From Clostridiales bacterium (GTDB lineage: Bacteria > Bacillota > Clostridia > Mahellales > Mahellaceae), in contig JASGMM010000001.1 of assembly GCA_030156435.1 (NCBI GenBank), positions 36,418 to 100,417 of the forward strand: a stretch of 64,000 nucleotides of DNA, in the 5' to 3' direction. The notes below the pieces were generated by a model. It did not search any database, was not told where the DNA came from, and was given only the letters and a program-made list of their open reading frames with translations. Positions 1,013 to 64,000 of this stretch are shown here, in pieces. Numbering within the stretch: the first letter of the stretch is position 1; the number at the start of each line of letters is the position of its first letter. Position numbers and translations under genes: made by a program.

Positions 1013-2167
1013 CTAATTAGCTACCATACCGGTCTTTATCTCTTCATAAAGGCCTATGGCGGTAACATTTCTGCCGTCACCAACGACGCTGTTTTTGCGT
1101 ATTATAGCATTACTTCCTACTATCGCTTTATTTACTATAGCGTTTTCACCTATATATACGTCGGGCATTATAACCGAATCTATTATCTTGGCATTTCTTT
1201 CTACTTTAACATTTGTAGATAACACCGAATGTATAACTTCGCCGTGTATCTCGCATCCGTCAACCACTATGGAATTCTGGACTTTAGCAGCGTTGCCTAT
1301 ATACTGAGCCGGCATGGCTTGTGCCAACGAATAGACGCGCCATGTAGGATCACCTATATTAAGATCATCATTTTCACTTAAAAGATCCATGTTAGCTTCC
1401 CAAAGGCTTTCCACTGTCCCCACGTCTTTCCAGTAACCTTTAAACGGGTAAGCATACAATCTCTCACCGCGCTCCAGGATAGCCGGTATAACGTTTTTAC
1501 CGAAGTCATGAACAGATTCAGGATTATTAGCATCTTCTATCAAGGCTTCTTTGAGCAATTGCCAGTCAAACACATATATGCCCATAGACGCCTTGGTGCT
1601 CTTGGGGTGTCGAGGCTTTTCTTCAAACTCGTATATAGAAAGGTCGTCATTGGTATTCATGATGCCGAATCTTGAGGCCTCGCTGAGAGGGACATCGGTA
1701 ACAGCTATGGTGCATCGTGCCCCTTTATCCTTATGAAATGCTATCATCTTATTATAGTTCATCTTATAGATATGGTCTCCCGATAGCACCAACACTAGAT
1801 TCGGTTCATACGCATCTATAAAGGGAATGTTCTGGTATACGGCATCGGCTGTGCCCTGATACCAATTGGCCCCCGAGGCCTTCTGATGCGGCGGCAATAT
1901 GAATACCCCGCCATTCAGCCTGTCCAAATCCCAGGGACTACCTACCCCTATATGCGTGTGGAGTTCCATAGGCATATATTGGGTCAGTACCCCCACAGTG
2001 TATATGCCGGAATTGGAGCAGTTGCTCAGCGTAAAATCAATTATCCTATACCTGCCGCCAAATGGCACGGCCGGTTTAGCTAAATTTTGAGTTAGAACAC
2101 CCAGCCTCGAACCTTGACCTCCGGCCAATATCATCGCTACTACTTCCCTTTTTCTCATAACGCGCAC
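1013..2167 (-). CDS. glgC: Glucose-1-phosphate adenylyltransferase
   Basis: [39 protein letters not shown] signature; 384 aa. Confidence 0.97.
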
Positions 2168-2171
2168 CCCT

Positions 2172-3947
2172 TTACATGAATATTTTAAAATCTAATGCGT
2201 TTATATCTATGCTAACCCCTTGTGTAGGAACGTCTACAGATACAGCCCTCTCAACATTCCTGTTTATAAACACAAAGGCTTTGCTCCCTTCATATGACCT
2301 CTCATAGCATAACACATCTCTGCCGGATGGATGAAATTTAAAATCCCCTTTATCAAATATATCGGTATTTCTTAAATCGGACATTCGCTTGTAAAAGGCT
2401 AAAATATCATCGTTCTCTCTACCCCATGGATATGTTCTCCTATTATCCGGATCTGTGCCCCCTTTGATGCCGACTTCATCACCATAGTATATAAGCGGCA
2501 CGCCAGGAAACGTCATCTGTATAACCACAGCCAGCTTGGCATACTTATATGCGTTTTCCCCCTTATCTTCGAAAACAGTAAATATCCTTTCGGTATCGTG
2601 CGTGCCCAGCACATTCAATGCCGCACAAAAGGTCTCGCGCGGATAATTTTCGTACAAGCTCATCATGCGCCTTGTAAATCCTGCAGAGTCTATATCACCT
2701 CTTAAAAAGCCTATAACCGCATTCCTAAACGGATAATTGGTCACTGAATCCAATTCGTTCCCAAAAAGATATCTCCGCCTTCTGGAGTAACTCACTTTAT
2801 TTGATGCATCTTCCCACACCTCTCCTATAAGCACGCTGTCTTTATTCACTTGTTTCATTTCGGCCTTAAAGGCTTCTATAAATTCATCGGGCAGCTCATC
2901 TGCCACATCCAGCCTCCAGCCGTACGCTCCCGCATTCATCCAATGTTTTAATACCGAGTCACCGTCGTATATTATAAAATTCTGGTAACTAGGAGCGAGT
3001 TCATTAACGTTCGGAAGATTTTTTATATTCCACCAACATTCATACTCATAAGGGTATTGTGTGAACCGGTACCAGCTATAATAAGGAGATTCTTTGGACT
3101 GATACGCCCCAATGCTGTCATATCGTCCAAATTTATTGAAATATATGCTGTCAGCCCCGGTATGGCTGAACACACCGTCCAATATTATTTTTATGCCTCT
3201 CTTGCCCGCTTCTATGCATAGTTTTTTGAACAAGCTTTCATCGCCATACATAGGGTCTATTTTTTTATAGTCCCCTGTATCATATTTATGATTGCTGCTG
3301 GCCTCAAAAATAGGGTTTAGGTATATGGCCGTAACATTTAACGATTTAAGATAATCCAGTTTTGCCATAACGCCCTTCAGATTGCCGCCGAAGAACTCCC
3401 AGCGTTCTATATCATCCTCTTTATTTCTTATATACATCGGGTCATCGTCCCAGCATCCATATATAAAACTGTTTTGCTTGGGATTTGATACTTTGCCATC
3501 CTCATTGCCGTTCAAAAACCTATCAACGAATATCTGATAGACTATACCCTCCTTAAACCATTGTGGTACGGTAAAGCCTTTATAGACCGTGATTTGATAA
3601 GGCGGAGGTACCGCATCGTACAGCTTGCCCGTACCTCCCATACCGTCCTGTTGGCACCCATAATAGAGCACATTTTGCCCTGCATACAGTATAAAATAAT
3701 AATTTATAAGGCCGGTATATTCATCGCCTATATCTACCCTTCCTTCAAAAGCGTGACCTTCTGCCCCGGCAGCCTTCGTCATAGATAAGATTTGTTCGCT
3801 GCCGTCGAAAAACTTCAGTGCTAATTCAGCGTTTTCGATACCACCCGCTTTAATCCTCAATGTCACTGTACTGCCGCTTTTAACCGCCCCAAACGGCGTA
3901 CGATAAAATGTATCATGCGAATCATGTTTGGCGTAAACCTCTATCAT
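2172..3947 (-). CDS. GH13 alpha-amylase family / neopullulanase-like glycosidase
   Basis: GH13 motifs ([30 protein letters not shown]), N-terminal CBM34-like region. Confidence 0.9.
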
Positions 3948-3959
3948 AAAGCCCCTTCT

Positions 3960-6398
3960 TTATAGATTTTTGTATAAATAATCTGATCCCCATATGCCTA
4001 CGGCATATTCCTCAATGGTCCTGTCGCTAGAAAATATGCCAGAATGGGCTATATTTACTATAGCCATCTTATTCCATTTAATGCGATCCTCGAACATTTC
4101 ATCCACCCTAGCCTGTGCTTCCAAGTACGGCACGAAATCCTTTAGCACGAAGAATTCATCGTTATATGTCGTCAAACTATCATATACGGCACGGAATTTA
4201 TCCTTATCTTTAGAATATTTGCCGTTTATAAGGTCATCCAGCACGCGTTTTAACGCCGGAGCAGCCTCTATTACATCAGCCGCTGAATAACCGCCGTTTC
4301 GATAATAATTCAGCACCTCTTTGCTGGTCAGGCCAAATATGACTATATTATCATCGCCTACCTCATCGCGTATTTCTATATTAGCCCCATCCAACGTTGC
4401 AATGGTTATGGCACCGTTCATCATAAACTTCATATTACTGGTACCCGATGCTTCTTTGGTGGTAGTGGATATCTGTTCGCTGAGGTCGGATGCCGGTATT
4501 ATAACCTCAGCCAGCGATACTCGGTAATTTTCCAAAAAAACCACTTTCATGAGGTCGTTGACCCTCGGATCATTGTTTATCTTATCAGCTATAGCATTTA
4601 TCAGCTCTATAATATTTTTTGCCAAATAATAACCGGGTGCTGCCTTACCGGCAAATATGAATGTCCTGGGCACTATATTCACATGCGGATTATCCAGCAA
4701 CCTATTATAGAGGTCCATTATGCGCAGGCAATTCAGCGTTTGCCTTTTATAGGCATGTATGCGCTTTATATGGGAGTCGAACATAGAAGACGGGTCGACA
4801 GTTATGTCATTGTGTTCTTTTATATAATGAGCCAACCTCTCTTTATTAGCTTTTTTTATACTCTCTAACTCGGCTTGAACAGCACCATCATAAGCATATC
4901 TCTCAAACCGTTCCAAGTCGATGGGGTGTCTTATCCAACTATCCCCTATAGTTTGCCTTAACAGCGATGCAAGGCCCGGATTAGCCTTCATAAGCCATCT
5001 GCGATGCGTTATACCGTTGGTCTTATTGTTGAACTTTTTGGGATCCAGATAATAAAAATCCGCCATGACCTCTTTCTTAAGTATTTCAGTATGCAGCTTA
5101 GCCACGCCGTTTACGCTGTGTGAGCCTACCACTGCCAGATGGGCCATGCGCACATAGCCGTCTGCTATTATAGCCATCCTGGCTATCTTATCCCATTGCC
5201 CCGTATAAAGATTCCACAACTGCCTGCAGAATCTCTCATTTATCTCGTTGACTATCATATAAATACGCGGCAACAACTCCTGGAACATGGATACCGGCCA
5301 TTTTTCCATAGCTTCGGGCATAATGGTATGGTTGGTAAACGACATGACATCGGTGGTTATACGCCACGCCTCATCCCATCCCAAACCCTCTTCATCCATC
5401 AGTATTCTCATGAGTTCCGGTATAGCAAGGGCCGGATGCGTGTCATTTATATGGACAGCTATACTGTCATCCAATTCCTTTATATTGCCTCCACAAGCTT
5501 TAAACTTCTTTATAATGCTCTGTATACCGGCAGATACGAAGAAGTATTGCTGTTTTAACCTCAGTTTCCTGCCTTCATAAAATGTGTCATCAGGATAAAG
5601 CACCTGGGAAATCGCCTCTACAGAATTCCTATAATCCACAGCTTTTGAATATTCGCCCCTGCTGAACGAGGAAAAGTCAAATTCATCCACAACAGGCTCG
5701 GCGCTCCACAGCCTAAGCGTATTTACAGTGCCATTTTCATAACCCACTATAGGTATGTCATAAGGAACTGCCATAACCGGCTCATAATCCCTCTGATAAA
5801 ATACAAGGCGTCCACCCTGGTTTATCATATCCACATATCCCCCGAATTTAACTATCTCAGCCTCATCGGGTTTTTTTATTTCCCATACGTTACCGTTTTT
5901 CAGCCAATCGTCAGGCGCTTCCACCTGAGCCCCGTCGATTATCTTCTGCTCAAAGAATCCATACTTATATCTTATGCCGCAGCCATGGCCGTATATATTC
6001 AACGATGCCATGGAATCCAGGAAGCACGCGGCCAGCCGACCCAAGCCTCCATTGCCCAAACCTTGATCCTCTTCCAATTCCTCCAGCTTATCCAGATCTA
6101 TACCCAATTCAGAAAGCGCCTCTTTACACATATCCCTTATACCTAGGTTGAGAAGTGTAGTTCCTAAAAGTCTGCCCAATAAGAATTCCATAGAAAAGTA
6201 ATATACTTGTTTTTGGTGCGAAAATGAGCATTTTTTATTGCTGGCCACCCATAATTTTGCTACATAATCCCTTATTAAGCCGGCCAGCGCTTCATATTTA
6301 TCATAATCCGCTCCTTCCGACAATTCTTTACCGTTTATCTCTATAAACTTCTCCTGGTAATCGCTTTTGAATTTATCTTTATTTATATTTAGTAGCAT
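3960..6398 (-). CDS. glgP: Glycogen/starch phosphorylase
   Basis: 812 aa; EASGTSNMKFMMNGAITIATLDGANIEI PLP-site signature. Confidence 0.97.
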   Translation of the reverse strand: MLLNINKDKFKSDYQEKFIEINGKELSEGADYDKYEALAGLIRDYVAKLWVASNKKCSFSHQKQVYYFSMEFLLGRLLGTTLLNLGIRDMCKEALSELGIDLDKLEELEEDQGLGNGGLGRLAACFLDSMASLNIYGHGCGIRYKYGFFEQKIIDGAQVEAPDDWLKNGNVWEIKKPDEAEIVKFGGYVDMINQGGRLVFYQRDYEPVMAVPYDIPIVGYENGTVNTLRLWSAEPVVDEFDFSSFSRGEYSKAVDYRNSVEAISQVLYPDDTFYEGRKLRLKQQYFFVSAGIQSIIKKFKACGGNIKELDDSIAVHINDTHPALAIPELMRILMDEEGLGWDEAWRITTDVMSFTNHTIMPEAMEKWPVSMFQELLPRIYMIVNEINERFCRQLWNLYTGQWDKIARMAIIADGYVRMAHLAVVGSHSVNGVAKLHTEILKKEVMADFYYLDPKKFNNKTNGITHRRWLMKANPGLASLLRQTIGDSWIRHPIDLERFERYAYDGAVQAELESIKKANKERLAHYIKEHNDITVDPSSMFDSHIKRIHAYKRQTLNCLRIMDLYNRLLDNPHVNIVPRTFIFAGKAAPGYYLAKNIIELINAIADKINNDPRVNDLMKVVFLENYRVSLAEVIIPASDLSEQISTTTKEASGTSNMKFMMNGAITIATLDGANIEIRDEVGDDNIVIFGLTSKEVLNYYRNGGYSAADVIEAAPALKRVLDDLINGKYSKDKDKFRAVYDSLTTYNDEFFVLKDFVPYLEAQARVDEMFEDRIKWNKMAIVNIAHSGIFSSDRTIEEYAVGIWGSDYLYKNL

Positions 6399-62920: not shown

Positions 62921-63370
62921 ATGGAAATCAGCCGTATAGAAAATAAACTAAAAACCACCGGTTATAGCATTACCTCAAAGAGGCACATAATACTACAGAT
63001 TTTGGCTTTAAACGATGATAAATACCTTTCGGCCCAAGAGCTATATCAGTTAACCAAAGACAACGAAAGCAGGATAGGTATATCCACTATATATCGCACA
63101 CTGCATATATTAGATAAATTGAATTTGCTTACAAAATTTTCACTAAATGGTGCTATCAAGTATCAGCTAACATCCTTACGGCATATGAATATATGTCATT
63201 TAATATGCCTTAACTGTGATACTATCCTAAAAGTACCTATCCCCGATTTGGATAAATTAAAACAAGCTATTATGAATGAATATGGTTTTGATATAACAAG
63301 CTATTCCTTGAATTTCTTCGGCTATTGTAAAAAATGCTCTCAAGAAGTTAAAGCTTGTAGTTTTACATAA
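62921..63370 (+). CDS. Fur family transcriptional regulator
   Basis: LKTTGYSITSKRHIILQIL..GISTIYRTLHILDKLNLL; C-terminal CxxC pairs (CLNC, CKKC); RBS gaaggag before 62921. Confidence 0.92.
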   Translation: MEISRIENKLKTTGYSITSKRHIILQILALNDDKYLSAQELYQLTKDNESRIGISTIYRTLHILDKLNLLTKFSLNGAIKYQLTSLRHMNICHLICLNCDTILKVPIPDLDKLKQAIMNEYGFDITSYSLNFFGYCKKCSQEVKACSFT

Positions 63371-63656
63371 ATATATGCTTTAATGATGATCTTTGGGAAA
63401 GCATTGAAATTGCGGCACAACTCAAGCGTCCTTTTCCCATAATCATTATTCTATCTGCTATCTTCGGCGCCACAGCCCAAAGCATTAAGACTCTATATAT
63501 CCGTTCATCATTGCATAATGCACCATCAATAGCATTCCCATGTACATATCTTTCTATAACCTCCCAAATGTCAAAATGGTTGTTTTTCTATCACCGATCA
63601 TGCGCAGGAGACTTTCTCCATATCTCTGCGCCATACCCTTCCTCAGAAGGCTGTAT
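63363..63656 (-). pseudogene. Frameshifted ORF remnant of unknown family adjacent to the IscB-like gene
   Basis: Minus-strand YSLLRKGMAQRYGESLLRMIGDRK, then +1 shift at an A5 run (63583-63587), then NNHFDIWEVIERYVHGNAIDGALCNDERIYRVLMLWAVAPKIADRIMIMGKGRLSCAAISML...*. Confidence 0.45.
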
Positions 63657-63687
63657 CATATATTATATATTCGCCGTCCACGAAAAA

Positions 63688-64000
63688 TTACCGCAGGGGG
63701 CTCGCTACTTTAGTAGCGAGAGGAACGCGGTATTCCTCCTTTCTGTTAAATATTTGATATTCGTATCCGTCGTTTCTCTGTAATAGCTTCAAATACTTTG
63801 GATGTACGTCAAAGCCGTTTAGTTTGAAGCTCGGACGATGGCGTATCGCGACACGCCCGATATGAATACCTTTGTATTTCCCTTTTGGTATGACAGCCAG
63901 TACCGTATCGCCTGTTTTGAAGCCCAGAAACATTCGTGTTCTTTGGCGATGGCTACGAGGAAAGCCGTATTTGTCTGTATTGCACATTTGGCGTGTCCCA
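63688..64000 (-). CDS. iscB: IscB-like RRXRR/HNH RNA-guided nuclease, C-terminal part (N-terminus beyond right edge)
   Basis: GTRQMCNTDKYGFPRSHRQRTRMFLGFKTGDTVLAVIPKGKYKGIHIGRVAIRHRPSFKLNGFDVHPKYLKLLQRNDGYEYQ; conserved IscB C-terminal (DKYGFPR..., GF.TGD.V.AV.PKGK..G...GRVA.R, LLQR.DGY.Y). Frame remains open to window end. Confidence 0.88.
   Translation of the reverse strand, partial: GTRQMCNTDKYGFPRSHRQRTRMFLGFKTGDTVLAVIPKGKYKGIHIGRVAIRHRPSFKLNGFDVHPKYLKLLQRNDGYEYQIFNRKEEYRVPLATKVASPLR
63701..63720. repeat. Perfect inverted repeat (hairpin) within the last codons of the IscB-like gene, candidate right-end hairpin of an ISC/IS200-IS605-type element
   Basis: ctcgctact tt agtagcgag (9-bp arms), 11 nt before the stop codon in gene orientation. 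Confidence 0.65.

What the first reader, a model, noticed from the sequence alone, without database searches (positions are those of the whole stretch)
63688..64000. IscB-like OMEGA nuclease C-terminus at the window edge
DKYGFPRSHRQRTRMFLGFKTGDTVLAVIPKGKYKGIHIGRVAIR...KYLKLLQRNDGYEYQ is the conserved C-terminal region of IscB proteins (RRXRR/HNH ancestors of Cas9). The reading frame continues past 64000, so the RuvC/HNH domains and the omega-RNA (expected 5' of iscB, beyond the right edge) are not visible. A thermophilic or moderately thermophilic IscB would be valuable as a compact RNA-guided nuclease.
Basis: partly seen in the sequence, partly recalled or inferred. Interest (0 to 1): 0.65.

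Follow-up and report, generated by a model that had tools for sequence, protein, structure and literature searches.

The report
Multi-copy IscB mobile element, cut off
The window ends inside the gene for an IscB, a small RNA-guided DNA-cutting protein related to the ancestor of Cas9, carried by a mobile element present in at least five copies in this Mahella-like genome; it is a real but ordinary member of a known family, and comparing the copies shows which sequences its guide RNAs should target.

Summary
The last 103 codons of an iscB gene lie at 63688-64000 (minus strand), and the frame is still open at the edge. The window edge is also the end of contig C47: the assembly broke there because the element is repeated. 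The genome is Mahella-like; cultured M. australiensis grows best at 50 C.

I recovered the other end of the element. Five contig ends carry its left end, the 5' part of a HEARO (omega) RNA; four carry its right end, one being the window. Three left/right pairs lie side by side in relatives that lack the element, which delimits it as GTCAAC...TTTTTC. All nine right flanks examined (three lineages) start with GTGG, the predicted target-adjacent motif; the guide is the left flank. The window copy probably interrupts the 3' end of an fmdE-like gene.

A complete relative in a viral contig (1.58 kb: HEARO RNA plus an intact 444-aa RRXRR/HNH protein, 79% identical over the shared 103 residues) shows what the missing 1.1-1.2 kb should contain. 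That middle is absent from this assembly, so intactness and activity here are not shown. New member of a known kind.

The parts
63688..64000 (-). 3' end of iscB: last 103 codons plus stop (stop at 63688-63690); C-terminal TAM-interacting (TI) region of IscB; frame open at the window and contig end
   Evidence: homology to C-termini of full-length IscBs
63682..63735 (-). Right end of the element (after iscB): ends ...GCGGTAATTTTTC at 63682; overlaps the last codons and stop of iscB
   Evidence: Conserved in four G000 copies, four G001 copies and L215, flanks diverge after it
63701..63720 (.). Subterminal hairpin CTCGCTACTTTAGTAGCGAG of the right end, as in IS200/IS605 ends
   Evidence: DNA fold -11 kcal/mol, z = -3.1
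63678..63681 (-). GTGG (CCAC on +): target-derived tetranucleotide next to the right end; predicted TAM
   Evidence: 9/9 right flanks start GTGG; present in empty cdd, C70 and C82 sites
63663..63681 (-). Probable last codons and stop (W T A N I stop) of an interrupted fmdE-like gene whose main part is on contig C33
   Evidence: Joined reading frame and own paralogue ending ..RGW-stop; inferred pairing

Best explanation
The feature is the 3' end of one copy of a multi-copy, non-autonomous IS200/IS605-like element that carries a HEARO (omega) RNA followed by iscB, with no tnpA in the one complete relative. The expected whole is about 1.58 kb: left end GTCAAC and omega-RNA scaffold, iscB (~444 aa), right end TTTTTC. 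Shown: the boundaries, the RNA family, the protein family, at least five left and four right ends in this genome, and the joining of flanks in relatives without the element. Inferred: transcription enters from the left flank, so each copy's omega RNA carries the adjacent ~16-20 nt as its guide; IscB with that RNA cuts the empty site (guide match followed by GTGG) that appears when a Y1 transposase acting in trans excises the element; repair from a sister copy restores it, so the element persists and spreads. GTGG would be both the insertion motif and the TAM, read by the C-terminal domain that lies in the window. For the window copy the predicted target is the intact fmdE-like site, ...GTGAATATACCCGTGG followed by GTGG.
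For: C-terminal 103 aa homologous to 22 named-genome loci and L215; full-length homologues have RuvC and HNH motifs, confirmed by profile for L215 and C90; L215 protein matches OgeuIscB/TbaIscB by sequence and its AF2 model has IscB/IsrB as the ten best PDB hits. Left ends with HEARO 5' part at five contig ends; HEARO 156-166 bits in L215 and two G001 copies. Flank pairs adjacent in G001 and G002. GTGG after 9/9 right ends, background 0.0029. dN/dS 0.26 against L215. Both ends fold into hairpins.
Against: The middle ~1.1-1.2 kb is absent from the G000 assembly, so neither HNH/RuvC nor the full omega RNA was read in this genome. In two of three joined sites the relatives do not have GTGG (ATGG; ATGA/GTAA). 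The window's left partner (C33) is inferred. No tnpA sits with the element; the genome's two full TnpA genes are elsewhere and their ends showed no similarity. No activity data.
Confidence: 0.92

Rival explanations
1. The window copy and its sisters are decayed derivatives: the ends are still mobilised in trans, but the nuclease is broken in most or all copies of this genome.
For: Middle not assembled; copies differ by amino-acid changes (94% identity window vs C102); a truncated left end without iscB exists at C103:13758-13837; within-G001 copies show few silent and several replacement changes.
Against: All tails read are open to the same stop; dN/dS of 0.09-0.26 between lineages; L215 is intact.
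Confidence: 0.2
2. GTGG belongs to the element rather than to the target, so it is not the insertion motif or TAM.
For: It follows 9/9 right ends, and in two of three joined sites relatives lack it.
Against: The cdd site has a single GTGG both when empty (two relatives) and when filled; two G001 insertion sites read GTGG when empty in G000; counting GTGG once as target restores three reading frames.
Confidence: 0.07
3. The fragment is an unrelated beta-barrel protein, for example the C-terminal part of 3-dehydroquinate synthase II, not IscB.
For: Only profile hits of the fragment itself are DHQS models (Pfam E 1.1e-4, below cut-off); 8 of 18 homologous C-termini also hit it weakly.
Against: Every full-length homologue is an IscB, and the same genome carries HEARO left ends of the same element.
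Confidence: 0.01

Closest known systems
IMG/VR contig 3300033986_000276 (L215), complete HEARO-IscB element
   Same: Left end 95% identical, right end 90%, protein 79% over the shared 103 aa, GTGG right flank
   Different: Lies on a viral contig; complete; one copy seen
Characterised IscBs: OgeuIscB (7XHT, 7UTN), TbaIscB (9K30), HfmIscB (9K2Z), OrufIscB
   Same: PLMP, RuvC, bridge helix, HNH and C-terminal TI domain; HEARO/omega RNA 5' of the gene; GTGG fits the NNRR motif reported for OgeuIscB
   Different: Low sequence identity; the C-terminal 103 aa have no detectable sequence match to any PDB chain
Second IscB lineage of the same genome, C90:2320-3711
   Same: HEARO RNA (164.5 bits) and RRXRR-HNH protein
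   Different: 47% identity over the shared C-terminus; extra CxxC...CxxC insertion; right flanks start ATGAAA in three copies
IS200/IS605 elements with tnpA in this genome (C38, C5)
   Same: Hairpin-ended single-strand transposons; possible source of TnpA in trans
   Different: They carry tnpA next to a long ~500-codon frame (TnpB-like by position and length, not profile-checked); ends not similar to the IscB element

Membership tests
IscB (OMEGA nuclease) | PLMP/RRXRR-RuvC domain | tested here: inconclusive
   Met in L215 and C90 and visible in the other full-length homologues; the window copy itself is cut off before it
IscB (OMEGA nuclease) | HNH domain inserted in RuvC | tested here: inconclusive
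   Met in L215 and C90 by profile and in other homologues by motif; not readable in this copy
IscB (OMEGA nuclease) | C-terminal TI region homologous to that of full-length IscBs | tested here: met
   45-79% identity to C-termini of full-length homologues
IscB (OMEGA nuclease) | HEARO/omega RNA directly 5' of iscB, at the left end | tested here: met
   5' part at five G000 left ends; whole RNA in G001 and L215; the link to this copy rests on shared ends
IscB (OMEGA nuclease) | RNA-guided DNA cleavage | not testable with these tools
   Needs an assay
IS200/IS605-like element | Subterminal hairpins and insertion next to a fixed short motif without target duplication | tested here: met
   Hairpins at both ends, flanks adjacent in relatives, GTGG/CCAC at every right flank
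IS200/IS605-like element | Y1 transposase (TnpA) that moves it | tested here: inconclusive
   None in L215's element; two full TnpA genes elsewhere in the genome

The most novel reading that the evidence does not exclude
One moderately thermophilic genus keeps two separate multi-copy IscB/HEARO families with different target motifs (GTGG and ATGAA) and no tnpA of their own: natural, mutually independent RNA-guided retention systems that share transposases supplied in trans.
Probability: 0.5. Interest if true: 0.4.

Novelty: new member of a known kind. Interest (0 to 1): 0.3.

Why it matters
It adds a compact IscB lineage from a moderately thermophilic genus, with natural guides and a short predicted target motif (GTGG) that follow from insertion sites in three lineages, so a cleavage assay could start without a blind motif screen. 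It does not change the understanding of IscB.

Tried and rejected
PDB sequence search with the fragment or its profile gave no IscB. The Pfam/NCBIfam hits to 3-dehydroquinate synthase II (below cut-off) were rejected as a family assignment. Other repeats shared among contig ends do not resemble HEARO and are other elements. Pairing the window with left end C19 was considered: it gives only a 12-residue extension of an ABC-type start, whereas C33 restores an FmdE-like end. Off-site matches of the five 16-nt guides next to GTGG (up to 3 mismatches) were sought in the part of G000 held and none found. One literature search was malformed. Motifs of TbaIscB and HfmIscB were not found in text and not compared. 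The G001 left end L218 and right flank L025 lie about 106 bp apart in G000 C70; whether one event with a deletion or two insertions was not resolved.

Full report
Observation. The ORF at 63688-63999 on the minus strand encodes GTRQMCNTDKYGFPRSHRQRTRMFLGFKTGDTVLAVIPKGKYKGIHIGRVAIR...NDGYEYQIFNRKEEYRVPLATKVASPLR and is open at the window edge. The window is G000:C47:36418-100417 and C47 is 100,417 bp long, so the edge is the end of the contig.

What the protein is. The 103 aa match 22 loci of named genomes and one IMG/VR contig, L215, at 79% over all 103 residues. Aligned with full-length homologues they fall at the extreme C-terminus, after PLMP, RuvC-I (DPGSKTTG), an arginine-rich bridge helix, RuvC-II, HNH and RuvC-III (HWxDAxCVG). 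L215's protein scores 252 bits for RRXRR and 53.8 for HNH, matches OgeuIscB and TbaIscB by sequence, and its AF2 model (mean pLDDT 73.5) has IscB/IsrB as the ten best PDB matches. The fragment alone has no detectable PDB sequence relative. Its model is mostly beta, consistent with the beta-barrel TI domain described for OgeuIscB (PMC9640706); the two best structural hits, HfmIscB and DtIsrB, are weak (E 0.25-0.31).

Which organism. G001 coincides with Mahella sp. M2_7_6_bin.2 (same contig-end matches) and is listed as the same genus as G000. G002, 3.1 Mb in one contig, is probably M. australiensis (inference). M. australiensis grows at 30-60 C, optimum 50 C (PMC3156404). No name is available for G000 itself.

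Why the gene stops. The same 3' end sits at the ends of contigs C102, C103 and C17. A comparison of 202 contig ends finds five (C10, C19, C33, C51, C6) sharing GTCAACTACCCCCGTCTAAAGACGGAGGCATGAAGCCTCGAAGTTGACCAGCCTC.... This is the start of a HEARO RNA: it is 95% identical to the left end of L215, where HEARO scores 156 bits, and to two G001 left ends where HEARO scores 166 and 163 bits. The middle of the element is missing from the assembly: RRXRR and a complete HEARO occur only on C90, another lineage. In L215 the whole element spans 1739-3318 (1.58 kb), with iscB at 1978-3312.

Boundaries, guides and target motif. Left flanks end ...GATATAAAGAAATC (C10)...GGCAAGACCAAAGCA (C19)...GAATATACCCGTGG (C33)...GCATGAACGATTAT (C51)...GGTATGCTCGAT (C6); right flanks begin GTGGACGGC (window), GTGGACATG (C102), GTGGATCTT (C103), GTGGCAATA (C17). 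In G002 and G001 the C6 and C102 flanks abut exactly with GTGG present. The C10/C103 flanks abut with one base changed (ATGG). The C51/C17 flanks keep the same spacing with substitutions at the motif (ATGA, GTAA). The joins restore cdd, a 4Fe-4S-protein frame and a ZIP-transporter-like frame (names from the translated sequence, not profile-checked). The G001 insertion with left flank L216 corresponds to an empty ...ATACCTAA|GTGGAAATGG site in G000 C82, and right flank L025 to an empty AATGAA|GTGGCAGG site in C70. Nine of nine right flanks in G000, G001 and L215 begin GTGG, against a genomic frequency of 0.0029. GTGG fits the NNRR motif reported for OgeuIscB (PMC9640706).

The window copy. C33 carries a gene ending ...CAGEYTRG at the element (FmdE-like by its motif, from memory); the window continues W-T-A-N-I-stop; the own paralogue on C24 ends ...DYSRGW-stop. 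C33 is therefore the most likely left partner of the window. Neither flank had a DNA match in G001 or G002, so this pairing is inferred. C19 lacks a right partner in the data searched.

Working model. By established knowledge of OMEGA systems, the omega RNA takes its guide from the left flank and IscB cuts guide match plus TAM. The insertion itself separates guide match from TAM, and no guide (16 nt) has a GTGG-flanked match with three or fewer mismatches in the part of G000 held. The element would cut the empty site after excision and be restored by recombination. No tnpA lies inside L215's element; two full tnpA genes occur in other elements of this genome. Trans mobilisation, retention and cleavage are inferred, not shown.

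Selection. Over shared codons dN/dS is 0.26 (window vs L215) and 0.09-0.25 (window vs G001 copies); within genomes the changes are too few to judge. This suggests a functional lineage but does not prove that this copy is intact.

Verdict. A correct first reading of an ordinary kind of element. Added here: copy number, boundaries, five natural guides, a predicted GTGG motif and a complete relative. No paper in the library searched mentions both Mahella and IscB.

Noticed in passing
L011 (G000:C90) 2320-3711 iscB, 3759-3964 HEARO, minus strand: A second, complete IscB lineage with a CxxC...CxxC insertion after the bridge helix; three copies (one G000, two G002) all have right flanks starting ATGAAA, suggesting a different motif (ATGAA) from the window type.
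   Followed up: partly
L052:1501-1579 (G000:C103:13758 onward): A truncated left end: 80 bases of HEARO 5' part at 97.5% identity, then unrelated sequence and no iscB; a deletion remnant.
   Followed up: partly
window 63691-63999 (minus): The IscB C-terminus weakly resembles the C-terminal region of 3-dehydroquinate synthase II (Pfam E 1.1e-4, below cut-off); 8 of 18 homologous C-termini also hit at E 0.1 or better. Shared beta-barrel or chance.
   Followed up: partly
window about 63363-63595 (minus): Next to the element, an open stretch (..FDIWEVIERYVHGNAIDGALCNDERIYRVLMLWAVAPKIADRIMIMGKGRLSCAAISMLSQRSSLKHIFM) without an obvious full gene; looks like the remnant of a decayed gene.
   Followed up: no
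G000:C70 8226-8333 against G001 loci L218 and L025: A G001 left end and a G001 right flank map about 106 bp apart in the empty G000 region; either an insertion with an adjacent deletion or two separate insertions.
   Followed up: partly
G000 contig ends C37/C67/C7/C85/C89/C96, C44/C62/C64/C69/C77, C10/C27/C33/C44/C50/C8/C98: Several other repeat families break this assembly with shared ~99-base overlaps; probably other insertion sequences.
   Followed up: no
L215:400-1158: The complete relative of the element sits on a contig classed as viral, near an ORF that looks like a phage packaging or DNA-binding protein; not profile-checked.
   Followed up: no
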